Assembly (NCBI RefSeq): GCF_003367905.1
Contig: NZ_CP029462.1
Location: 2,480,001 to 2,544,000 of the forward strand
Source of the DNA: Megasphaera stantonii
GTDB lineage: Bacteria > Bacillota > Negativicutes > Veillonellales > Megasphaeraceae
Direction of reading: 5' to 3'
DNA: 64,000 nt
The notes below the pieces were generated by a model. That model worked only from the letters and a program-made list of their open reading frames with translations, was not told the origin of the DNA and did no database searches. This document shows positions 6,407-26,807 of the stretch, one piece after another. Each line of letters opens with the position of its first letter. Position 1 is the stretch's first letter. Made by a program: the position numbers and the translations under genes.

Positions 6407-6453
6407 TTGGCATAGGTAATGCATTGCCAAGGCGTACAGTTGTTTGGTATACT
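6407..6453 (+). promoter_or_regulatory. Promoter of the first Rpn gene with overlapping inverted repeat
   Basis: -35 TTGCCA (6424-6429) and -10 TATACT (6448-6453) with 18-base spacing. TTGGCA (6407-6412) and TGCCAA (6425-6430) form an inverted repeat whose right half overlaps the -35 box, a usual operator position. No regulator gene is adjacent. Confidence 0.6.
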
Positions 6454-6475
6454 ACAAATAGAAGGAGGCGAGGCC

Positions 6476-7297
6476 GTGAAGCGGATCAAGGACTGGGAAG
6501 AACTGACTATACAGGACAATTTCTTATTTCAAAAGGTTATGCGCAATAAGCGCTTGTGTCAGTATTTGATTGAGAAAATACTGCAAATTAAGATAGCCGA
6601 TATTACCTATCCCGATACGGAAAAGGCGATTGATATCCGGCTGGACAGCAAGAGCGTACGCCTGGATGTGTATGTTCAAGACGATACAGGACGGGTATTT
6701 AACATTGAAATGCAGTGTACTGATGAGCAGGACAGCGGATTGGCGAAACGGACGCGCTATTATCAGGCTATGATAGATATGGATATGCTGAAAAAAGGCG
6801 AAGTGTATAATAAGCTCAGGCCGTCTTATATTATATTTATTTGTACCTTTGATGCCTTTGACGCAGGACTGCCTATGTATACATTTAGAAATCGGTGCAT
6901 TGAAACTGAAGGGCTGGAGCTGGGCGACGAGGGAACGAAGATATTCCTGAACAGCAAGGGCGATAGCGATACGCTGGACCCGGATGTACGGGCTTTTCTG
7001 CGGTACGTAGACGGCAAGGCAGCAGAAGGCGCATTTGTAAAGGCCGTAGAAAGAGAAGTAATACGAGTTAAGGAACACAAGGAAACGAGGCGAGAATATA
7101 TGACGCTGGCAATGGAATTAGAGAGACAAAGACAATTTGGCCGGGAAGAGGGCCGGGAAGAAGGCAGAGAAGAAGAACGGTTGCAGATGATATTGGCGAT
7201 GCTGAAAGATGGGGTTGCGAAAGAAACCATAGCAAAATATGCAAGAGTTTCAGTAGAATATATTACAGAACTAGGCAAGAAGAATCATCTGTTATAG
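6476..7297 (+). CDS. Rpn-family PD-(D/E)XK nuclease, locus 1
   Basis: A 273-residue member of the Rpn (recombination-promoting nuclease/putative transposase) family. GTG 6476 was chosen as start because AAGGAGG lies at 6462-6468 and family homology begins at VKRIKDWEELTIQDNFLF. The nuclease core shows the aspartate in SVRLDVYV and the ExQ variant in FNIEMQC, near residues 60-85. A charged C-terminal segment carries three GREE four-residue repeats (7139-7174) and then a small helical tail. An internal ATG at 7100, preceded by GAGG, could give a separate 65-residue C-terminal product, as reported for the short forms of other Rpn proteins. A second copy of the 3' half follows at 7369. Rpn proteins act in recombination and in phage defence in studied cases; activity here is inferred. 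Confidence 0.85.
   Translation: MKRIKDWEELTIQDNFLFQKVMRNKRLCQYLIEKILQIKIADITYPDTEKAIDIRLDSKSVRLDVYVQDDTGRVFNIEMQCTDEQDSGLAKRTRYYQAMIDMDMLKKGEVYNKLRPSYIIFICTFDAFDAGLPMYTFRNRCIETEGLELGDEGTKIFLNSKGDSDTLDPDVRAFLRYVDGKAAEGAFVKAVEREVIRVKEHKETRREYMTLAMELERQRQFGREEGREEGREEERLQMILAMLKDGVAKETIAKYARVSVEYITELGKKNHLL
7100..7297 (+). CDS. Possible in-gene short Rpn product (antitoxin-like), locus 1
   Basis: The same frame as the full gene, starting at ATG 7100 after GAGG at 7087-7090. It would give 65 residues beginning MTLAMELERQRQF, carrying the GREE repeats and the C-terminal helices. The Shine-Dalgarno match is only moderate, so this is weaker than the equivalent at 25826. It is reported because the duplicated fragment at 7501 repeats the same start context. 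Confidence 0.4.
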   Translation: MTLAMELERQRQFGREEGREEGREEERLQMILAMLKDGVAKETIAKYARVSVEYITELGKKNHLL

Positions 7298-7368
7298 TTG
7301 TATAAGGCGTCTGCGCAAGTAGACGTCTTATTTTATAGGCTGACGTATTCTTTTGCTGCGGCGACAGC

Positions 7369-7597
7369 GATACACTGGACCCAGATGTACGGGCTTTTCT
7401 GCGGTATGTAGACGGCAAGGCAGCAGAAGGCGTATTTGTAAAGGCCGTAGAAAGAGAAGTAATACGAGTTAAGGAACCCAAGGAAACGAGGCGAGAATAT
7501 ATGACGCTGGCAATGGAATTAGAGAGACAAAGGCAATTTGGCCGGGAAGAGGGCAGAAAAAAAGGTCGGGAAGAAGGCAGAAAAGAAGGCCGGGAAG
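7369..7597 (+). pseudogene. Duplicated 3' fragment of the Rpn gene, truncated by an IS
   Basis: Starts in the middle of the family sequence (SDTLDPDVRAFLRYVDGKAAEG region) and is nearly identical to 6964-7160 of the intact gene. It lacks the nuclease core. It keeps the internal ATG context (7501) and carries a longer and more varied run of four-residue repeats (GREE, GRKK, GREE, GRKE, GRE from 7540). The reading frame runs into the IS element at 7598 and stops inside it. Before the insertion it could have encoded a stand-alone short C-terminal protein. Confidence 0.75.
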
Positions 7598-7654
7598 TGA
7601 ACTGCCCCCCAAATGTTAGACCAAAAAATCTAACGATTGGAGGTCAGTTTTTTT

Positions 7655-16700: not shown

Positions 16701-19700
16701 ATGAACCGAATTTACAAAGTCATTTGGAGCAAGGTCAAGCACCAGTACGTTGTCGTATCGGAACTGGCTCACAGCTGCACGAAGAGTACGAGCAGCCGTG
16801 TCGGCAGAAGCGCCGCCGCCGTATTGGCTGCCTTGGTGCTGACGACGGGCGTCTGCGCTGTACCGGTGCAGGCCGAAGACCTGACAGATCCGTATGCCCT
16901 GTTGAATGAGAAGGTAGAAAAATCAAAAAATTCGGATCCTATAGTAGAATTGGTCCAAAGCCCGTTGGCTAAGGCTGCGTCTGAAACCACAGCCGAAACG
17001 AATAGCGACAACCAGCCAGCTGACGAAGAAGCTACGACGCCGACACAGCCGGCTGATTCACAAAAACAGCATACCATTATCAATCAAGACGGCATCTATG
17101 CCAGCAACGGCAAAGGTACGTATAATACGCTGAGCAAAGACGGCCTGTGGGTTGGCGGAAGGGATGACGGCGAAGGACTCTATGTCGATAACGACGGCAA
17201 TATGCGCACGACAGGGAACGTCATGGTAGACGGCGCATTTTCGGCTGGCGACGGCAATGCTTATATTGCTAAAGACGGATCGACGAGTATTCAGGTAGGC
17301 GGCTCCCAGTTTATCGTCAATAGTGATATTGCTGGTATGAGTAATGGTAATGCCAGCGTTTCTGTAATGAATAATAGTGCCGAAGTACGAGCAGCAGATA
17401 ATCTGATTGCAGCAGGTATTGACGGTATTACCATGTCGGAACAGACAGGAAACACAACGGTAACGGTTAATCAAGATGGTATGACTGTTGATGGGGATTT
17501 GACTGTTACCGGTGATACGAACTTGAAAGATACAGGCGTAGATGGAACTTTAAATGTATCTGGCAATCAGACTGTTGGCGGGAATTCGACGGTTAAAGGC
17601 AGCCAGGAAGTGTTGCATGACCTGACAGTCGGCGGCAGTTCGACGGTTAAAGGCAGCCAGGAAGTGTTGCACGACTTAACGGTTGGTGGCAGTTCGACGG
17701 TTAAAGGTAGCCAGGAAGTGTTGCATGACCTGACAGTCGGCGGCAGTTCGACGGTTAAAGGCAGCCAGGAAGTGTTGCATGACCTGACAGTCGGCGGCAG
17801 TTCGACGGTTAAAGGCAGCCAGGAAGTGTTGCACGACTTAACGGTTGGTGGCAGTTCGACGGTTAAAGGTAGCCAGGAAGTGTTGCATGACCTGACAGTC
17901 GGCGGCAGTTCGACGGTTAAAGGTAGCCAGGAAGTGTTGCATGACCTGACAGTCGGCGGCAGTTCGACGGTTAAAGGCAGCCAGGAAGTGTTGCACGACT
18001 TAACGGTTGGTGGCAGTTCGACGGTTAAAGGCAGCCAGGAAGTGTTGCATGACCTGACAGTCGGCGGCAGTTCGACGGTTAAAGGCAGCCAGGAAGTGTT
18101 GCATGACCTGACAGTCGGCGGCAGTTCGACGGTTAAAGGCAGCCAGGAAGTGTTGCATGACCTGACAGTCGGCGGCAGTTCGACGGTTAAAGGCAGCCAG
18201 GAAGTGTTGCACGACTTAACGGTTGGTGGCAGTTCGACGGTTAAAGGTAGCCAGGAAGTGTTGCATGACCTGACAGTCGGCGGCAGTTCGACGGTTAAAG
18301 GCAGCCAGGAAGTGTTGCATGACCTGACAGTCGGCGGCAGTTCGACGGTTAAAGGCAGCCAGGAAGTGTTGCATGACCTGACAGTCGGCGGCAGTTCGAC
18401 GGTTAACGGCAGCCAGGAAGTGTTGCATGACCTGACAGTCGGCGGCAGTTCGACGGTTAAAGGCAGCCAGGAAGTGTTGCACGACTTAACGGTTGGTGGC
18501 AGTTCGACGGTTAAAGGTAGCCAGGAAGTGTTGCATGACCTGACAGTCGGCGGCAGTTCGACGGTTAAAGGTAGCCAGGAAGTGTTGCATGACCTGACAG
18601 TCGGCGGCAGTTCGACGGTTAAAGGCAGCCAGGAAGTGTTGCACGACTTAACGGTTGGTGGCAGTTCGACGGTTAAAGGCAGCCAGGAAGTGTTGCATGA
18701 CCTGACAGTCGGCGGCAGTTCGACGGTTAAAGGCAGCCAGGAAGTGTTGCATGACCTGACAGTCGGCGGCAGTTCGACGGTTAAAGGCAGCCAGGAAGTG
18801 TTGCACGACTTAACGGTTGGTGGCAGTTCGACGGTTAAAGGTAGCCAGGAAGTGTTGCATGACCTGATAGTCGGCGGCAGTTCGACGGTTAAAGGCAGCC
18901 AGGAAGTGTTGCACGACTTAACGGTTGGTGGCAGTTCGACGGTTAAAGGTAGCCAGGAAGTGTTGCATGACCTGACAGTCGGCGGCAGTTCGACGGTTAA
19001 AGGCAGCCAGGAAGTGTTGCATGACCTGACAGTCGGCGGCAGTTCGACGGTTAAAGGCAGCCAGGAAGTGTTGCACGACTTAACGGTTGGTGGCAGTTCG
19101 ACGGTTAAAGGTAGCCAGGAAGTGTTGCATGACCTGACAGTCGGCGGCAGTTCGACGGTTAAAGGCAGCCAGGAAGTGTTGCATGACCTGACAGTCGGCG
19201 GCAGTTCGACGGTTAAAGGCAGCCAGGAAGTTTTACACGACCTGACAGTCGGCGGGAATTCGACCGTAAAAGGAAATCAAACAGTAGGTGGCACAATTAC
19301 CGCTAATAAGGGAATTATCGGCGGCGTCATTTTAGAAACGACGGACGATGGCAAGAGCAAGGTCAAAGCAGATAAAGCCGACATCGGCGGTGTTATTATT
19401 AAAGATAAAGGCATTGAAGCTGGTACTGTACAGATTAACAAAGGCAGTGCAACGGATAACCGCGTCTTAGATGTCAATGGCAATTTTGCTGTTTATAATG
19501 ACGGAGCCTTTAAAGCCGCTGGTGAAAACTTTGTCGTTAAAGCCACTGGCGATGTAACGGCTAATTCGTATCGTAACGCTAATGGCACGTTTACAGCTGA
19601 TGAAACTGGCCTTGTAACAGCAACGAAAGCGCAAATAGACAATGTAACGATTGGCGGTGAAGACCCATCTGCTGCTATTAAGGTCAGCGATGATAACTTT

Positions 19701-22700
19701 ATCGTTTATAATGATGGAGCATTCCAAGCGGCAGGACGTAAATTCTTAGTTAATAATCAAGGTGAAATGACTGCTGCAGCGGCAACGGTGGATAATGTTG
19801 TCATTGATAATAACCAAGTGACAGGTCTTTCTAATACAACATGGAATCCTGAAGATCCTGATTCTATAGTAGAAGACAGGGCAGCAACGGAAGGCCAGTT
19901 GATGTATGTCGATGCGCAGGTAAAAGTCAACAGCGATGACCTTGCAGCATATAAAGCCGCTGGTATTGTTGCAGGAAATGAAGTGGGCCAGTACTCTAAC
20001 TCTATTGCGTTAGGAAACAATGCGACTGTCGATAGTACGAACAGCATTGCAATCGGTGCAGGCAGCACTGCAGATGGAGCTCAGGCTACGGCCTTAGGGC
20101 AGAATTCGAATGCCTTAGGTCATGGAGCGGTTTCCTTAGGCGCTAATTCAGAAGCTGTAGGAGAAGGCGCAGTTTCGATTGGTTTTAACAATTCGGCGGA
20201 AGTAGCCGGTTCGGTTGCTATTGGCAACGGTGCCCATGTATATGAAGGCGGTACGAATTCGGTTGCCTTAGGCCAGTGGAGTCAGGCCTCTGACGATAAA
20301 GTCGTTTCCGTAGGGAATGATTGGCTGAAACGCCGGATTACCAATGTAGCCGCAGGCACAGATCCTACCGATGCTGTCAACGTACAACAGCTGACAGATC
20401 GGACTGCCAATATGGTGGAATGGGATGAAAATACGGATGACACAATTCATGGTGTCACCTTGGAAAATGGCATGATTACGGCTGCTGAAGGTAACTTCAA
20501 GGTATATGGTACAGGCGGCATCTATGCTGCTAATGGCAAGTTCCAAGTCAACGGTAATACTGGCGATGTTAGTGCAGAGGGCAATTTGAAGGCCGCTGAC
20601 GGTAAGTTCTTCGTCAATGGTGACAACGGCAGTATCATTGCAGCTGACGGGGATTTCAAAGTTTCCGGTAAGGGCGATGTCACTGCAGCAGGCAGCCTTA
20701 CTGCGGCAGATGAAAAATTCAAGGTTTATGGCGCAAGCGGCGGCTTTATGGCAGCTGATGGAAAAGTAGAAGTCAACGGCTACACTGGAGACATCAGAAC
20801 CGATGGGAAAGTTACGGCCAATGAAATTCATGCAGCTAACGACAACTTCATTGTTTATGAAAGTGGTGTTGTGAAACTCAACGATGGTAATCTTGTGATC
20901 GGTACGAATGGCGACTTGAATTCTAAAGGCACCATCACTGGTAACGTATTGAGTACAGGCGGTTTTGTAGCTAATGCAGATGGAAATGCTGAAGCTAAAG
21001 GTACTGTAATCGCTAATACTTTAAGTACTGGTGCAGATGGATTTATTGCTAACAGCGATGGTGATTTTGAAGCCAGAAATGCTCATATTGATGGCACGCT
21101 TTTGGTTGGTGAAAAATTCAAGGTAACATCCGATGGTGAATTGATTGCCGCAAATAGCGCCTTTAAGGTGGGTGCTGATGGTACGGTGACGGCTGTTAAA
21201 GGCGGAAGTATCGGCGGAGTAGAGCTGAAAGACGGTGAAGTGACTGGCCTGAACAATACGACGTGGGATGCTGGTAATATTGTCGATGACCGTGCGGCTA
21301 CGGAAGGTCAGCTGGCAGTTGTCGATGCAAAGGTAAAAGTCAACAGCGACGACCTTGCAGCGTATAAAGCAGCCGGCGTTGTTCCGGGCGCAGTGCCTGC
21401 TGAAGCAGAAGGAGCAATGGCTCTTGGTGCAGGGGCAGAAGTACGAGGCGATAGCGATAAGGCCATGGCGATTGGCAACGGTGCAGCTGCTACGAATAAA
21501 AACGCTGTAGCTTTGGGCGCAAGCGCAACGGCTAAAGGTGTAGATTCGTTGGCTTTGGGCGCAAATGCCAATACTGATGTCAGCGCGCAGCACGCAGTAG
21601 CCATCGGCGCGTGGGCTGGAGCTACGGAAGACAATGCTATCGCAATCGGTCAGAGCGCTGGCGCTAAAGCCGAAAATGCTGTGGCAGTAGGCATGGAAGC
21701 AAAGGCTGAGGGCGATCATAGCGTAGCATTAGGTGCAAATAGCGGAGTAGCGGAAGACACTACTAACAGCATGGCTCTTGGCAACAACGCGAAGGTTGAA
21801 AATGCAGGCAGTGACAGTGCGTTGGCTATTGGCGATGAAGCAACTGTTACGGCAAGCCATGCCGTAGCTGTAGGTGCAGGTGTAGAAGCTGACGGTGTAC
21901 ATTCGCTGGCTATGGGTTCTGATCTTACTGTAACAGGCGATAATGCTATCGGCATCGGCTACAGTGCAGGCATGGGAACTAAGATCAGCGGTGAAAATGC
22001 GATAGGCATTGGTAAAGCTGTCAATGCGACGGACAAGAATACGATTGCTTTAGGTACGGCTGCTGCTTCGAATGAAGAAAACGCTATTTCTATCGGCACT
22101 AGAGCGACAGTTGACAGCTATAATAGCATTGCTATTGGTGCAGAAAGCGGTGTTGCAGAAGGCAGCCAAGAAGGTATAGCCTTAGGGTATAATGCTAACG
22201 TTAGTACGAATGGCGCTATTGCGATTGGTTCGAATAGCGTTGCGGCAGGAGAAGGCAGCATGGCTTTGGGTTTAGGCGCATCGACAACATTGCAAGCTCC
22301 GCACTCTGTTGCTATTGGTGAAGGCAGTGTTGCTGATGAATCAATGGTTGTTTCCGTTGGTCATGCTGGAGAAAACGGACAGCGCCGCATTATCAACGTA
22401 GCGGCTGGCACGAAAGATACCGATGCCGTAAATGTTTCTCAAATTAAAGGCATGGTAAGATGGGATCAGGATGCTGACGATTCCTATCTGGAAGGGACGC
22501 TGAGAGGCGTAACATTGTCTGATGGTACTATTACGGCAGCTAATGGTAATTTCGTAGTTACAGACGATCCCAAGAGTGGTACGGATTCGATTCTCAATAT
22601 TGGCGAAGATGCGTTTAGAGTCAATGAAAATGGTGGTTTTGTTGCTGGCAATGGAAACTTTAAAGTATTTAGCACTGGCGGCGTTGTAGCGGCTGGCGGA

Positions 22701-24524
22701 GACTTTAAGATTAACAGTGAAACTGGTGCAGTAACTACTACTTCTGTTACGGGACTTACGAACACAGACTGGAATACTACGCATGATTATAGCGATTCTA
22801 CTCTTGCTGCGACAGAAGCGCAGTTGCAGGCTGTAGCCGAAGAAGCAGGCAAGCAAGCGAGTGTAGTGAGTGCTGACGGCAACTTGACGGTGAACGATGC
22901 TACTACTAATGCTAGTGGAGGGACTACGTTCAAAATTGGTCTTAGCGATAAAGTTGTCTTAGACGGCGATAAGGGAACGACGATTACTCTTAATAGTGGC
23001 GAACTGAATGCTGATGATTCTGCTTTTAGTATTACAACGCCAGGATTAGCAACGGGACGTACGCAATCCTTTGATTTTTCGAGTGCGGGTGCTGTTTTCA
23101 AAGAAGCATATGCAGATACGTCGAACTCTACTAAGATTGCTGGCAGCACAATTATATCTGAAAATTATTATCATGATGAGGGTACTGGAGAAAAACGTAC
23201 TGCTACGACTGTAATTGATGGGGGTACCCTTAGAGTAAGTAGCAGTGGCGGGGAATCGGATAAAACCGTTATTAAAGGTGCCGATATTACAGTTGGTACT
23301 ACAACTGGTGGAGCGGCACAAACTCACATTACCGCTAAGGAAATTACAATTGGCGGAGATCTGTTGAATGATGACAAGGCAACTGCACTGCGAATCACAA
23401 ATAACGGCGTAAATGATAGAACTATCACCGGCTTGACTAATATAACGTGGAAGAGTGATGAGGAATGGCAGAAAGCGCATTACGAATCAAGTAGAGCTGC
23501 AACAGAAGGCCAGTTGAAGATAGTAGATGACAAAGTCAATGCGAATGCCGATGCTATTGACAAGCTGAATAAGTTCACTGGTCTTAGTAAAGACACCAAT
23601 GCAAAAGTTTCTGCCTTTGCTGCGAAGACGCAGGGTATCAACTGGGATAATTTGAATACCTTGTCGCAGATTTCACCGATGAATCTGGCTGCGCCGATGA
23701 ATGCAGCCGTACCGACGGCCAATGCGACGAGATTCCCTGACCTTGACGACGAATCTGGCGAAAGCGGAACTACTGGAGATACGGGCAGAGTTCCTGTTGA
23801 AGGATTAACTGTGACGGACGATCAAATTTCGACTGACAGAGACTTCAGCGTCGGCGGAGATCTGAGCGTAAGCGGCGATACGACGCTTGGCGGCAAGCTT
23901 ACGGTTGGCGGCGAAGCTACGTTTAACGACAACGTTAGCATCAAAGGCGACCTGAACATGAACAACAACAAGATCACTGGCGTGGCTGCTGGCGATGTAA
24001 ACGCTACATCGACGGACGCTGTCAACGGCAGCCAGCTCTACGGCGTACAGCAGGATGTTGAAGCTAACGCGAAGAACATCAGCACTCTCGGCGGCGCAGT
24101 CAATAAGCTTGGCAACCGCATTGACGAAGTCGGCGCTGGCGCAGCGGCCTTGGCAGCTCTCCATCCGCTCGATTTCGACCCGGACAACAAGTGGGACTTC
24201 TCGGCAGGCTTCGGTAACTACCGCGGTGAAAGTGCCGTCGCCTTCGGCGCCTTTTACCGTCCGAATGAAGATACCATGTTCAGCGTCGGCGGTACCGTCG
24301 GCAACGATGACAACATGGTCAATGCCGGCGTATCCCTGAAGATTGGCTCGGGCAGCAGCGGCGTCACCACGTCTCGCGTAGCCATGGCTAAGGAAATCAA
24401 AGCCATGCGCGACGTCGTCGCTAAACAGGACGCCCAGATCCAGAAGCTGACGGCTATGGTCAATGCCTTGGTCGGCGTGCAGACGGAACCGGATACGACG
24501 ACGATGTTCCCGGATGTACCGTAA
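16701..24524 (+). CDS. Giant YadA-like trimeric autotransporter adhesin, stopped inside its SLH domain
   Basis: 2607 residues. The N-terminus MNRIYKVIWSKVKHQYVVVS is an extended signal peptide region of type V secretion, followed by a hydrophobic core and likely cleavage after VPVQA. Next come a beta-rich segment, 31 tandem 18-residue repeats (about residues 293-850), and beta-solenoid segments. There are two YadA-type heads rich in SxAIGxxA motifs (about 1097-1227 and 1567-1914), each ended by a neck motif RRI(T/I)NVAAGTxxTDAVNV. Then follow more stalk, a last neck GDVNATSTDAVNGSQLYGVQ, a YadA anchor (about 2460-2553) and a coiled coil. The frame stops at TAA 24522-24524, just after FPDVP, and without this stop it would continue to 24785. 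Ribosome binding site AAAGGGG. It is probably a cell-surface adhesin; wall docking through SLH is lost unless the stop is read through. Confidence 0.88.
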   Translation: MNRIYKVIWSKVKHQYVVVSELAHSCTKSTSSRVGRSAAAVLAALVLTTGVCAVPVQAEDLTDPYALLNEKVEKSKNSDPIVELVQSPLAKAASETTAETNSDNQPADEEATTPTQPADSQKQHTIINQDGIYASNGKGTYNTLSKDGLWVGGRDDGEGLYVDNDGNMRTTGNVMVDGAFSAGDGNAYIAKDGSTSIQVGGSQFIVNSDIAGMSNGNASVSVMNNSAEVRAADNLIAAGIDGITMSEQTGNTTVTVNQDGMTVDGDLTVTGDTNLKDTGVDGTLNVSGNQTVGGNSTVKGSQEVLHDLTVGGSSTVKGSQEVLHDLTVGGSSTVKGSQEVLHDLTVGGSSTVKGSQEVLHDLTVGGSSTVKGSQEVLHDLTVGGSSTVKGSQEVLHDLTVGGSSTVKGSQEVLHDLTVGGSSTVKGSQEVLHDLTVGGSSTVKGSQEVLHDLTVGGSSTVKGSQEVLHDLTVGGSSTVKGSQEVLHDLTVGGSSTVKGSQEVLHDLTVGGSSTVKGSQEVLHDLTVGGSSTVKGSQEVLHDLTVGGSSTVKGSQEVLHDLTVGGSSTVNGSQEVLHDLTVGGSSTVKGSQEVLHDLTVGGSSTVKGSQEVLHDLTVGGSSTVKGSQEVLHDLTVGGSSTVKGSQEVLHDLTVGGSSTVKGSQEVLHDLTVGGSSTVKGSQEVLHDLTVGGSSTVKGSQEVLHDLTVGGSSTVKGSQEVLHDLIVGGSSTVKGSQEVLHDLTVGGSSTVKGSQEVLHDLTVGGSSTVKGSQEVLHDLTVGGSSTVKGSQEVLHDLTVGGSSTVKGSQEVLHDLTVGGSSTVKGSQEVLHDLTVGGSSTVKGSQEVLHDLTVGGNSTVKGNQTVGGTITANKGIIGGVILETTDDGKSKVKADKADIGGVIIKDKGIEAGTVQINKGSATDNRVLDVNGNFAVYNDGAFKAAGENFVVKATGDVTANSYRNANGTFTADETGLVTATKAQIDNVTIGGEDPSAAIKVSDDNFIVYNDGAFQAAGRKFLVNNQGEMTAAAATVDNVVIDNNQVTGLSNTTWNPEDPDSIVEDRAATEGQLMYVDAQVKVNSDDLAAYKAAGIVAGNEVGQYSNSIALGNNATVDSTNSIAIGAGSTADGAQATALGQNSNALGHGAVSLGANSEAVGEGAVSIGFNNSAEVAGSVAIGNGAHVYEGGTNSVALGQWSQASDDKVVSVGNDWLKRRITNVAAGTDPTDAVNVQQLTDRTANMVEWDENTDDTIHGVTLENGMITAAEGNFKVYGTGGIYAANGKFQVNGNTGDVSAEGNLKAADGKFFVNGDNGSIIAADGDFKVSGKGDVTAAGSLTAADEKFKVYGASGGFMAADGKVEVNGYTGDIRTDGKVTANEIHAANDNFIVYESGVVKLNDGNLVIGTNGDLNSKGTITGNVLSTGGFVANADGNAEAKGTVIANTLSTGADGFIANSDGDFEARNAHIDGTLLVGEKFKVTSDGELIAANSAFKVGADGTVTAVKGGSIGGVELKDGEVTGLNNTTWDAGNIVDDRAATEGQLAVVDAKVKVNSDDLAAYKAAGVVPGAVPAEAEGAMALGAGAEVRGDSDKAMAIGNGAAATNKNAVALGASATAKGVDSLALGANANTDVSAQHAVAIGAWAGATEDNAIAIGQSAGAKAENAVAVGMEAKAEGDHSVALGANSGVAEDTTNSMALGNNAKVENAGSDSALAIGDEATVTASHAVAVGAGVEADGVHSLAMGSDLTVTGDNAIGIGYSAGMGTKISGENAIGIGKAVNATDKNTIALGTAAASNEENAISIGTRATVDSYNSIAIGAESGVAEGSQEGIALGYNANVSTNGAIAIGSNSVAAGEGSMALGLGASTTLQAPHSVAIGEGSVADESMVVSVGHAGENGQRRIINVAAGTKDTDAVNVSQIKGMVRWDQDADDSYLEGTLRGVTLSDGTITAANGNFVVTDDPKSGTDSILNIGEDAFRVNENGGFVAGNGNFKVFSTGGVVAAGGDFKINSETGAVTTTSVTGLTNTDWNTTHDYSDSTLAATEAQLQAVAEEAGKQASVVSADGNLTVNDATTNASGGTTFKIGLSDKVVLDGDKGTTITLNSGELNADDSAFSITTPGLATGRTQSFDFSSAGAVFKEAYADTSNSTKIAGSTIISENYYHDEGTGEKRTATTVIDGGTLRVSSSGGESDKTVIKGADITVGTTTGGAAQTHITAKEITIGGDLLNDDKATALRITNNGVNDRTITGLTNITWKSDEEWQKAHYESSRAATEGQLKIVDDKVNANADAIDKLNKFTGLSKDTNAKVSAFAAKTQGINWDNLNTLSQISPMNLAAPMNAAVPTANATRFPDLDDESGESGTTGDTGRVPVEGLTVTDDQISTDRDFSVGGDLSVSGDTTLGGKLTVGGEATFNDNVSIKGDLNMNNNKITGVAAGDVNATSTDAVNGSQLYGVQQDVEANAKNISTLGGAVNKLGNRIDEVGAGAAALAALHPLDFDPDNKWDFSAGFGNYRGESAVAFGAFYRPNEDTMFSVGGTVGNDDNMVNAGVSLKIGSGSSGVTTSRVAMAKEIKAMRDVVAKQDAQIQKLTAMVNALVGVQTEPDTTTMFPDVP
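17577..19250 (+). repeat. 31 tandem copies of a 54-base coding repeat
   Basis: The span of 1674 bases is exactly 31 units of GGSSTVKGSQEVLHDLTV (first unit GGNS, one unit with N for K, one with I for T). Two synonymous DNA variants alternate: most units have CATGACCTGACAGTC, others CACGACTTAACGGTT. The second type occurs at about 17670, 17832, 17994, 18210, 18480, 18642, 18804, 18912 and 19074, mostly 162 bases (three units) apart, which shows a higher-order repeat. Changes in copy number keep the frame. Confidence 0.95.
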
Positions 24525-24895: not shown

Positions 24896-24941
24896 AAAAA
24901 CAGCGTCCTGAAGGCCTATATGCTTCATGACGCTGTTTTAT
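24896..24941. terminator. Bidirectional hairpin, paralogue of the one at 26519
   Basis: AACAGCGTC and GACGCTGTT form a stem with A and T tracts outside. The inner bases (CTGAAGGC..TATGCTTCAT) match the terminator at 26519-26562, which shows that both belong to a duplicated block. Confidence 0.7.
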
Positions 24942-24962
24942 GTTATGTCGTATTCAATTTCC

Positions 24963-25130
24963 TTAGAACGAAGGTGTCTCCAAGGCAGGATGGGTGCAGG
25001 GATTCAGGGGCAAGGAGGCGACGAGGTAGATTGATTCTTCCAAGGTGACGTCTTCCTTTGCTCTGACTTTGCTGCCGGGCAGGCAGATGGATTCTCTTGT
25101 TTCGCTGTCGCCGAAGATGATGACGGCCAT
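24963..25130 (-). pseudogene. Shortened copy of the 76-residue small protein gene
   Basis: From ATG 25130 it reads MAVIIFGDSETRESICLPGS, then KVRAKEDVTLEESIYLVASL and PLNPCTHPALETPSF. This parallels the protein at 26577-26807 (IIFGDAETGEYIYLPGGEVG .. CAHPALGRRSF) but lacks about 12 central residues and the normal N-terminus. No ribosome binding site is evident. It is probably a decayed duplicate. Confidence 0.5.
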
Positions 25131-25188
25131 GGTAAGGACGAATGGCGTAAACGGCATGGCTGCCGTCTGGGAGACGACGGCCGGCGTA

Positions 25189-25232
25189 TGGTATAATAAG
25201 GTAAAGATACCATTGCGCGAAGTCATTGCGCA
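25189..25232 (+). promoter_or_regulatory. Extended -10 promoter and short repeats before the second Rpn gene
   Basis: TGG followed by TATAAT (25192-25197) is an extended -10; no good -35 is seen. GGTAT/ATACC (25191-25195, 25208-25212) is an inverted repeat across the start region, and CATTGCGC occurs twice in direct orientation (25211 and 25224). Confidence 0.45.
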
Positions 25233-25249: not shown

Positions 25250-26080
25250 ATGTATACGACAGAAATCAATCGGCTGAACGACTTTTATTTTAAGTATTTA
25301 CTGGGAAATGAAAAACGGAAAAACCTGACGATTCATTTCCTCAACGCCGTGTTGTATGGCGACGAGACGCCTCATATTACGGACGTGTCATTTATCGACA
25401 AAGACAAGGAGCCGAAACAGGCCGACGGCAAGATGGTAAAGTTGGATATTTTGGCTCGGACTGATGCGGGCATGCTCATCGATATTGAAGTACAAATACA
25501 GCGCCACCCACATCTGGCCGAGCGGTTTTTGTATTACTGGGCCGAGATGTACGGCGGACAGCTCAAACGGGGCGATGAATACAGCGCTTTGAAACCGGCT
25601 GTTTCCATCGTGCTGATGGACTTTGAATATTTACCTGAGGAAAGCTGGCATAATATATATCATATTTGCAATGACGTGTCGAAACAGGTGCTGACCCATC
25701 ATTTCGCCATGCATTTTATTGAACTGAAGAAATTTACGTATAGTGATATTAAGTCGCTGCACCGATTGGGAAAATGGACGGCCTATTTTTCCAATTGCAG
25801 CGCCGAAGAAACGGAGGAATTAGCCATGAGCGACCCGATCATGAAAGAAGTCGTCAACGCCGAAATGGCCTTTACAGAGGACGAAATCATGCGGCGGCAG
25901 TATACGCAGCGGGAAAAAGCCCTGCGGGATTACCGCAGCGACATGGCCGAGGCCCGGCGCGAAGAAAAATCTTTCATAGCCGTTAATATGCTGCGCATGG
26001 GTATGGATATCTCCTTAATTGCTAAGGCGACAGGCTTGTCTGAAGAAGCGGTTGAGCTGCTGAAGAAGAAACTGCCTTAA
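25250..26080 (+). CDS. Rpn-family PD-(D/E)XK nuclease, locus 2
   Basis: 276 residues, ATG 25250 after AAGGAAG. N-terminal MYTTEINRLNDFYFKYLLGN is typical of Rpn/PDDEXK_2 proteins. The catalytic region MVKLDILARTDAGMLIDIEV followed by Q shows D and an ExQ variant near residues 63-85. An internal ATG at 25826 sits 8 bases after a perfect GGAGG (25813-25817), so the last 84 residues can be translated separately. In studied Rpn systems the long form is a toxic DNase active against phage, and the C-terminal short form, translated from inside the gene, blocks it. The sequence here fits that plan, but activity is inferred. The C-terminal part is duplicated immediately downstream. Confidence 0.87.
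   Translation: MYTTEINRLNDFYFKYLLGNEKRKNLTIHFLNAVLYGDETPHITDVSFIDKDKEPKQADGKMVKLDILARTDAGMLIDIEVQIQRHPHLAERFLYYWAEMYGGQLKRGDEYSALKPAVSIVLMDFEYLPEESWHNIYHICNDVSKQVLTHHFAMHFIELKKFTYSDIKSLHRLGKWTAYFSNCSAEETEELAMSDPIMKEVVNAEMAFTEDEIMRRQYTQREKALRDYRSDMAEARREEKSFIAVNMLRMGMDISLIAKATGLSEEAVELLKKKLP
25826..26080 (+). CDS. In-gene short Rpn product (candidate antitoxin), locus 2
   Basis: 84 residues in the frame of the full gene, MSDPIMKEVVNAEMAFTEDE to ATGLSEEAVELLKKKLP. The start is supported by GGAGG with 8-base spacing, better than the signal of the full-length gene. The same GGAGG-AATTAGCC-ATG block is retained in the duplicate at 26118-26133, where it is the only sensible start. This version has no four-residue repeat expansion between AEARRE and EKSF. 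Confidence 0.65.
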   Translation: MSDPIMKEVVNAEMAFTEDEIMRRQYTQREKALRDYRSDMAEARREEKSFIAVNMLRMGMDISLIAKATGLSEEAVELLKKKLP

Positions 26081-26130
26081 TGGCAGGTCTTGGTATCAGC
26101 AGCGACGCCGAAGAAACGGAGGAATTAGCC

Positions 26131-26457
26131 ATGAGCGACCCGATCATGAAGGAAGTCGTCAATGCCGAAATGGCCTTTACAGAAGACGAAATCATGCGGC
26201 GGCAGTATACGCAGCGGGAAAAAGCCCTGCGGGATTACCGCAGCGATATGGCCGAGGCCCGGCGTGAAGGAGAGCAGAAAGGAAGACGTGAGGGAGAGCA
26301 AAAAGGAAGACGTGAAGGAGAACAGAAAGGGCGACGTGAAGAAAAGGTTTCTATTGCTGTCAACATGCTGCGGCTGGGTATAGATGTGTCTCACATTGCC
26401 GCGGCAACGGGCTTGTCTATTGCTGATGTGGAGCTGCTGAAGGCGAAATTGACTTGA
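26131..26457 (+). CDS. Duplicated stand-alone Rpn C-terminal protein with repeat expansion
   Basis: 108 residues from ATG 26131, preceded by GGAGG (26118-26122). The frame also opens at 26080 (MAGLGISSDAEETEELA), where the ATG overlaps the stop of the upstream gene, but that start has no comparable Shine-Dalgarno. The protein repeats the short form of locus 2 and carries three REGEQKGR units (26263-26334) where the upstream copy has none, then EKVSIAVNMLRLGIDVSHIA. There is no nuclease core, so it cannot be a nuclease. It is a plausible extra antitoxin or dimerisation partner. A further short remnant of the unit (TCAGCAGCGATGCCGA) lies at about 26473. Confidence 0.65.
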   Translation: MSDPIMKEVVNAEMAFTEDEIMRRQYTQREKALRDYRSDMAEARREGEQKGRREGEQKGRREGEQKGRREEKVSIAVNMLRLGIDVSHIAAATGLSIADVELLKAKLT

Positions 26458-26518: not shown

Positions 26519-26562
26519 AAACCCAGCGTCATGAAAGGTGTATGCGCTTCATGACGCTGGGT
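26519..26562. terminator. Bidirectional terminator between the Rpn locus and the small gene
   Basis: AACCCAGCGTCATGA pairs perfectly with TCATGACGCTGGGTT. A-rich sequence before it and TTTATATTTTTT after it allow use on both strands. Confidence 0.88.
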
Positions 26563-26576
26563 TTATATTTTTTGTA

Positions 26577-26807
26577 TTAAAACGACCGCCTTCCCAAGGC
26601 GGGATGGGCGCAGGGTTTCAGGGTCAGGTGGTCGACGAGATAGCCTGCTTCTTCCAGGGTGACGTCTTCCTTCGTGCCGTCGTGCTCGAAGACGCAAAGG
26701 GGATTGTCTGCGCCGACTTCGCCGCCGGGCAGGTAGATGTATTCTCCCGTTTCGGCGTCGCCGAAGATAATGCCGGCCAGGAGGTGTTTCTGGGCGATTT
26801 GGCTCAT
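26577..26807 (-). CDS. Small protein of unknown function coupled to a metallophosphoesterase
   Basis: 76 residues, MSQIAQKHLLAGIIFGDAET to CAHPALGRRSF. No family is recognised; it looks like a small beta-rich protein. Its ATG overlaps the stop of the upstream gene (ATGA at 26804-26807), so both are made from one transcript and probably act together. A shortened paralogue lies at 24963-25130, on the other side of the Rpn locus. Confidence 0.6.
   Translation of the reverse strand: MSQIAQKHLLAGIIFGDAETGEYIYLPGGEVGADNPLCVFEHDGTKEDVTLEEAGYLVDHLTLKPCAHPALGRRSF

What the first reader, a model, noticed from the sequence alone, without database searches (positions are those of the whole stretch)
25250..26457. 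Rpn nuclease with in-gene start and a duplicated, repeat-expanded stand-alone C-terminal protein
Seen: inside the Rpn gene a perfect GGAGG (25813-25817) lies 8 bases before an in-frame ATG (25826), which would release an 84-residue C-terminal protein. The whole 3' segment, including this ribosome site, is repeated downstream (ATG 26131) without any nuclease core and with three added REGEQKGR units; a third short remnant follows at about 26473. Known: for Rpn proteins a short form translated from inside the gene acts as antitoxin to the full-length nuclease in phage defence, and the number of four-residue repeats in it varies. Inference: the cell has duplicated the antitoxin part as a separate gene, perhaps to neutralise other Rpn toxins or to shift the toxin/antitoxin balance. 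I know of no description of such tandem antitoxin copies.
Basis: partly seen in the sequence, partly recalled or inferred. Interest (0 to 1): 0.85.

Follow-up and report, generated by a model that had tools for sequence, protein, structure and literature searches.

The report
Rpn toxin with spare antitoxin copy
A bacterial DNA-cutting toxin gene carries its antitoxin inside itself and is followed by a second, altered stand-alone copy of that antitoxin, an arrangement already reported in E. coli; comparison suggests that the spare copy does not fit its neighbour and may be a reserve specificity.

Summary
In detail: an Rpn nuclease (25250-26080) has an internal GGAGG-8-ATG start (25826), and its 3' end is repeated as a stand-alone gene (26080-26457) with three added REGEQKGR units. 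The "third remnant" is repeated post-stop spacer. The claim that such copies are undescribed is wrong: Zhong et al. 2023 report stand-alone RpnS genes downstream of E. coli rpnE (ypaA) and rpnC. Added here: internal starts are enriched in Negativicutes rpn genes (84 of 134; 20-31 in shuffles). Stand-alone copies recur, also at four more rpn loci of this genome. They look protein-constrained (pooled dN/dS 0.19, ten young pairs). In 17 of 18 intact pairs the copy differs from its neighbour in repeat-helix length, as in 19 of 19 E. coli genomes with pairs read. If the published one-repeat rule is general, such copies should not neutralise their neighbour; but ordinary homologues differ about as often, so selection for mismatch is not shown. 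In 6 of 9 single-copy E. coli loci read, the nuclease carries the stand-alone-type tail, so tails can switch. Best reading: a translated, non-cognate spare RpnS and possible tail donor.

The parts
25250..26080 (+). rpn gene (RpnL), PD-(D/E)XK nuclease, 276 aa
   Evidence: PF12784 E 1.8e-55; TIGR01784 161.4 bits, cut-off 52.1
25813..25817 (+). internal Shine-Dalgarno GGAGG
25826..26080 (+). intragenic RpnS frame, 84 aa
   Evidence: internal-start enrichment
26080..26457 (+). stand-alone rpnS copy, 125 aa open frame; its ATG overlaps the rpn stop
   Evidence: TIGR01784 positions 183-271, E 5.1e-12, 46.2 bits, below the cut-off of 52.1
26118..26122 (+). duplicated Shine-Dalgarno GGAGG of the stand-alone copy
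26131..26457 (+). 108-aa form of the stand-alone RpnS
   Evidence: fold model
26263..26341 (+). three 24-nt units coding REGEQKGR, absent from the rpn gene
26084..26111 (+). spacer/junction after the rpn stop, start of the duplicated unit
   Evidence: family D7
   Evidence: 82% to 26084-26111
24911..25226 (-). left flanking direct repeat with a degenerate small ORF
26535..26807 (-). right flanking direct repeat with the intact small gene

Best explanation
An Rpn gene-within-gene toxin-antitoxin unit (RpnL nuclease plus intragenic RpnS) is followed by a stand-alone rpnS that arose by tandem duplication of the tail-coding segment together with its internal ribosome site. The stand-alone protein is probably made (own SD and ATG; its upstream ATG overlaps the rpn stop and could be translationally coupled) and kept. 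Its 24-residue longer helix and different C-terminal end make it a non-cognate RpnS: unlikely to block its neighbour, more likely a spare specificity. It would act as antitoxin for Rpn proteins of that tail length and type, and as a tail that recombination at the shared 5' block can put onto the nuclease. Shown here: anatomy, internal-start enrichment, coding constraint, length mismatch, and E. coli alleles in which the nuclease carries the stand-alone-type tail. Inferred: translation, non-cognacy, use as donor, the duplication route, and the direction of the E. coli change.
For: Internal SD-start enrichment. Five synonymous and no other differences in 46 codons; pooled dN/dS 0.19, bootstrap 0.15-0.24, in 10 pairs of at least 85% nucleotide identity, 0.24 in all 18; an SD-like in-frame start in 14 of 18 copies. 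Length mismatch in 17 of 18 pairs, in 11 of 11 E. coli genomes with an rpnE pair and 8 of 8 with an rpnC pair. One extra repeat abolishes inhibition (PMC10327210). Tail switch: rpnE single-copy genomes carry the stand-alone-type tail in 5 of 5 read, rpnC in 1 of 4. Mosaic copies in this genome.
Against: Mismatch is not commoner than between ordinary homologues (74 of 99 pairs at 90% identity or more, 149 of 179 at 80-90%; Fisher p 0.07 and 0.32); with E. coli rpnE, 21% of shuffled pairings had no match either. Tail discordance of copies (5 of 8) does not differ from full-length homologues (39 of 103; p 0.26). The one-repeat rule was tested with RpnC only. Low dN/dS could be inherited from already diverged alleles. 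The E. coli direction was not polarised (one search failed). One pair (first L009 copy) has equal length.
Confidence: 0.5

Rival explanations
1. Dosage: the stand-alone copy is simply extra antitoxin for the neighbouring RpnL and works despite its longer helix.
For: Identical first 46 codons at the protein level; same operon with overlapping stop and start; YpaA is made in E. coli.
Against: Length differs in 17 of 18 pairs and one extra repeat abolished inhibition for RpnC; a cognate copy should be held in register.
Confidence: 0.17
2. Debris: the copy is a chance tandem duplication without function that has not yet decayed.
For: Repeat number drifts as between ordinary homologues; fragments and broken copies exist (L031, L044, L097, G054, G179, G125:C32, G125:C14); tandem duplication needs only short repeats.
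Against: Pooled dN/dS 0.19 in ten young pairs; intact frame with a kept ribosome site here and in 14 of 18 copies.
Confidence: 0.18
3. Modulator: the stand-alone protein forms mixed dimers with RpnS or the RpnL tail and lowers, rather than adds to, the inhibition.
For: RpnA_S dimerises through the repeat helix (PMC10327210); the copy is modelled as one long helix 20-81 with two short C-terminal helices.
Against: No direct evidence; unequal helix length should also disfavour mixed dimers (inference).
Confidence: 0.1

Closest known systems
E. coli rpnE with downstream stand-alone rpnE_S (ypaA)
   Same: Rpn gene with internal start, followed directly by a second tail copy with its own SD and ATG, nearly identical 5' part, different 3' end and different repeat number (described in PMC10327210)
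   Different: Other Rpn subfamily; +4 residues in K-12 against +24 here; here the copy's upstream ATG overlaps the rpn stop
E. coli rpnC with downstream stand-alone rpnC_S in some strains
   Same: Second tail copy downstream, unequal repeat region in 8 of 8 genomes read (PMC10327210)
   Different: The copy has a different 5' end and lies 68 or 98 nt after the gene
Silent-cassette systems such as pilin pilS (recalled, no call)
   Same: Works like, as an idea only: tail copies beside an expressed gene share a 5' block and differ in the 3' part
   Different: The copies keep their own start and are probably translated; no recombination was observed

Membership tests
Rpn family (TIGR01784 / PF12784) | Significant match of the full-length protein to the family profiles | tested here: met
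   PF12784 188.6 bits, cut-off 27.4; TIGR01784 161.4 bits, cut-off 52.1
Rpn family (TIGR01784 / PF12784) | PD-(D/E)XK catalytic residues and nuclease activity | tested here: inconclusive
   D66, E80 and Q82 are invariant in five aligned sequences of this genome; that these are the catalytic ones is recalled; no activity test
RpnL/RpnS gene-within-gene toxin-antitoxin | Internal translation start that releases the C-terminal domain | tested here: met
   Sequence level only: GGAGG-8-ATG, class-wide enrichment 84 of 134 against 20-31 in shuffles; translation not tested
RpnL/RpnS gene-within-gene toxin-antitoxin | Four-residue repeats of variable number in the tail helix | tested here: met
   REGEQKGR is two units with G at every fourth place; the copy differs by 24 residues
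RpnL/RpnS gene-within-gene toxin-antitoxin | RpnS three-helix fold as in PDB 7TH0 | tested here: inconclusive
   Model: helix 20-81 plus two short helices, also helix 4-18; Foldseek found only weak HTH matches and 7TH0 was not among the 50 listed; no PDB sequence relative
RpnL/RpnS gene-within-gene toxin-antitoxin | RpnS neutralises RpnL; phage defence | not testable with these tools
   No PADLOC model matched the nuclease at E 0.1 or better
Stand-alone RpnS gene (ypaA-like) | Separate downstream gene with the tail, without nuclease core, with its own start | tested here: met
   26080-26457, TIGR01784 positions 183-271 only, SD-ATG
Stand-alone RpnS gene annotated as DUF4351 (PF14261) | Match to DUF4351, the label that some stand-alone RpnS carry | tested here: not met
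   PF14261 is not among the Pfam matches at E 1 or better; DUF2802 and PDDEXK_2 match weakly; the copy is not filed as DUF4351

The most novel reading that the evidence does not exclude
Rpn loci are tail-switching systems: stand-alone RpnS copies are translated spare specificities, out of register with the resident nuclease, that both supply a new toxin/antitoxin tail by recombination at the shared start block and make the antitoxin for the switched toxin in advance, so that the switch is survivable.
Probability: 0.3. Interest if true: 0.78.

Novelty: new member of a known kind. Interest (0 to 1): 0.45.

Why it matters
Stand-alone RpnS genes are reported in E. coli, but in the text that I read I saw no explanation of what they do. 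The length mismatch predicts that they do not neutralise their neighbour, and the E. coli alleles suggest that they can be tail donors. Both predictions can be tested directly in laboratory E. coli with rpnE and ypaA. If right, a toxin-antitoxin defence system changes toxin and antitoxin specificity in one recombination step.

Tried and rejected
Dosage antitoxin for the neighbour: disfavoured by the length mismatch, not excluded. Selection for mismatch: not shown; homologues differ about as often. 'Third antitoxin remnant': rejected, it is post-stop spacer. Viral origin: no relative found in viral contigs (3 pattern matches, none confirmed); phage records hold 7 distant relatives at 26-30% identity; plasmids hold 1 record, Megamonas funiformis. 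Promoter scan: one promoter-like site, on the minus strand, fewer than in shuffles (mean 2.1); the 6 terminator-like sites were all on the minus strand. PDB sequence search: only a designed repeat protein at E 0.08. Fold search: no match at E 0.001.

Rows dropped before the 18-pair counts: L031, G054, G179, G125:C32, G125:C14 (fragments or stops) and G191 (different end, register unclear). In two of the 18 pairs (L002, G151) the neighbouring nuclease reading frame is itself broken or short. K-12 rpnE/ypaA is counted both among the 18 and among the 11 rpnE genomes. Two of 142 fetched hits gave no usable reading frame. The homologue pairs are not independent. The frames that I gave for the two L009 copies were wrong and were corrected. 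The automatic net values for ypaA, G081, G156 and G202:C74 (5, -2, 7, 6) include gaps outside the repeat; the values that I report (4, -4, 16, 4) are read by hand from the alignments. In one search every locus shows a 19-residue self match caused by my 60-nt overlap; I ignored it.

Full report
What is there. The window lies in a 2.65 Mb, one-contig genome at 2,480,001-2,544,000. The class is Negativicutes by inference: genome G118, listed as same class, has a 46,189-base contig, the length of a Megamonas funiformis plasmid in which the search found a match at the place where G118 has its copy. The copies are 97% identical over the first 164 nt and 70% over the last 124 nt. In the 46 codons from the internal ATG the five differences are all synonymous. 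The 'third remnant' is the spacer after the stop. Spacer and gene share GCAGCG and GCCGA, so the duplication may have arisen by recombination between such short sites, one upstream of the internal ribosome site and one after the stop (inference).

What is known. Zhong et al. 2023 (PMC10327210; I read parts 1 to 3 of 4 of its text; not part 4 or the supplements) show that RpnS is translated from inside rpn genes, blocks RpnL, and dimerises through a helix with four-residue repeats, and that one added repeat in RpnC_S or RpnC_L abolishes inhibition unless both carry it. They also report stand-alone RpnS genes downstream of rpnE (ypaA, protein detected) and, in some strains, of rpnC, and their loss by deletion or fusion. 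The arrangement in the window is thus a new member of a described kind. Four searches of the held library listed no other paper on stand-alone RpnS (20 of 96 papers listed; 20 of 501; 25 of 29; 4 of 4). A 2025 review, seen in two passages, names rpn as a toxin-antitoxin system. Most subscription papers are not held; the PNAS version was seen only as a reference.

Internal start. Of 134 Negativicutes rpn genes (133 fetched plus the window's), 84 have a strong SD with an in-frame start 60-125 codons before the stop; ten synonymous-codon shuffles gave 20-31. The control stretch had 1, shuffles 2-13. This supports internal initiation as a kept feature in this class.

How common the copies are. In a class sample 77 of 200 genomes had a TIGR01784 match (its list of matches was cut). 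I fetched the 142 listed hits outside this genome that I took up. 140 gave a reading frame; 14 of these had a tail-only copy or fragment within 2.8 kb downstream, and 9 more had other matches (mostly full-length tandem genes). Of 80 loci from named genomes (the best 80 of 291), 7 had a tail copy or fragment just downstream (L028, L031, L035, L044, L048, L066, L097); L025, L036, L068, L095 and L098 had matches further away or upstream that I did not classify. In this genome four more rpn loci have copies: L002, L009 (two copies and a remnant), L010 (core with a shortened tail, separate intact copy) and L011 (copy cut off beside transposase-like frames).

Are the copies kept as proteins. Of 24 candidate pairs 18 were intact enough to compare. 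In the 10 with at least 85% nucleotide identity pooled dN/dS is 0.19 (bootstrap 95% 0.15-0.24), in the 18 it is 0.24. If the copies were free to decay, about half of the substitutions would be unconstrained and the ratio should approach 0.5 or more (inference). An earlier, cruder split gave 0.29 and 0.25 for the 5' and 3' blocks. Copies made from two already diverged alleles would inherit a low ratio, which I cannot exclude. In 14 of 18 an in-frame start with an SD-like site is found (a loose set of SD words).

Do they fit their neighbour. In 17 of 18 pairs the repeat region differs in length: window +24, L002 +16, second L009 copy -8, L028 -4, L035 +4, L048 -4, L066 +12, ypaA +4, G118 +4, G162 +12, G090 +20, G125:C12 +4, G202:C102 -4, G151 +4, G081 -4, G156 +16, G202:C74 +4; only the first L009 copy is equal (ypaA, G081, G156 and G202:C74 read by hand). 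In E. coli 11 of 11 genomes with an rpnE pair (8 distinct pairs) and 8 of 8 with an rpnC pair (7 distinct) differ; the rpnC differences run from -6 to -24 and are not always multiples of four. These genomes came from evenly spread lists but I chose among them for varied match patterns, so they are not a random sample. By the published one-repeat rule, if general, these copies should not block their neighbours. The control speaks against more: full-length homologues differ about as often, 74 of 99 pairs at 90% identity or more and 149 of 179 at 80-90% (Fisher p 0.07 and 0.32), and 21% of shuffled rpnE pairings had no match either. Register is not held between copy and neighbour; selection for mismatch is not shown.

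Tail switching. The rpnE locus has a match in 5,371 of 5,426 E. coli genomes, 4,748 with at least 80% coverage. In the 11 pair genomes read the nuclease ends in tail A and the copy in tail B. In the 5 genomes read without the copy the nuclease itself ends in tail B. At rpnC 1 of 4 single-copy genomes read has the copy-type ending on the nuclease. In this genome the L009 gene and its two copies are 97-99% identical in the 5' block, yet the 3' part of copy 1 is 87% identical to the copy at L010 and 74% to its own gene, while the gene's 3' part is closest to that of L011 (83%). Among full-length homologues 39 of 103 pairs with a 5' block identity of at least 95% have tails under 75% identical; for the copies it is 5 of 8, no significant difference. 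Tails therefore behave as modules. That the stand-alone copies are the donors is suggested by E. coli and not proven; the direction was not polarised.

Structure. The 108-aa copy is predicted with mean pLDDT 86.7 (first 20 residues about 65) as a long helix (20-81) that holds the repeats, followed by two short helices. Foldseek returned HTH domains at weak E-values and nothing significant. This agrees with, but does not test, the RpnA_S fold.

Setting. The rpn locus lies between two copies of a segment with a small minus-strand ORF (left 24911-25226 degenerate, right 26535-26807 intact). The small gene is found in 15 of 15 genomes of the genus, this one included. Of its 14 relatives I looked at the 11 loci returned; none holds a match to this rpn within 1.5 kb. 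The rpn unit is therefore probably a local insertion, in line with the horizontal mobility reported for rpn.

Verdict. The useful outcome is a testable statement: the stand-alone antitoxin is not the antitoxin of its neighbour but a spare tail. I put 0.5 on the translated, non-cognate spare-tail reading, 0.17 on dosage, 0.18 on debris and 0.1 on a modulator.

Noticed in passing
24911-25226 and 26535-26807: The rpn locus is flanked by a direct repeat of a small minus-strand ORF (left copy degenerate; blocks of 70-83% identity). The small gene is in 15 of 15 genus genomes; 11 of 11 relatives' loci examined have no rpn beside it.
   Followed up: partly
about 6419-7600: A second Rpn gene of another subfamily (L011) in the window, followed by a tail copy that breaks off beside transposase-like frames (the label is by recall).
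   Followed up: partly
L009 1429-3272: An rpn gene followed by two tail copies and a remnant, each with a hairpin-like end by eye; 5' blocks 97-99% alike, 3' parts mosaic with other loci.
   Followed up: partly
L002 1470-2620: The closest paralogue (66%) seems frameshifted near its N-terminus (two matches in different frames), while its tail and the stand-alone copy behind it are intact.
   Followed up: partly
16701-24524: Large ORF (2607 aa) with about thirty near-identical VGGSSTVKGSQEVLHDLT-type units, looks like a YadA-type trimeric autotransporter (label by recall).
   Followed up: no
G076:C2:214908-215726 against G179:C1:1226801, 1686925 and 755804: Rpn genes of two Negativicutes genomes, 96-97% identical in the aligned part but with different tails, possible natural tail exchange.
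   Followed up: no
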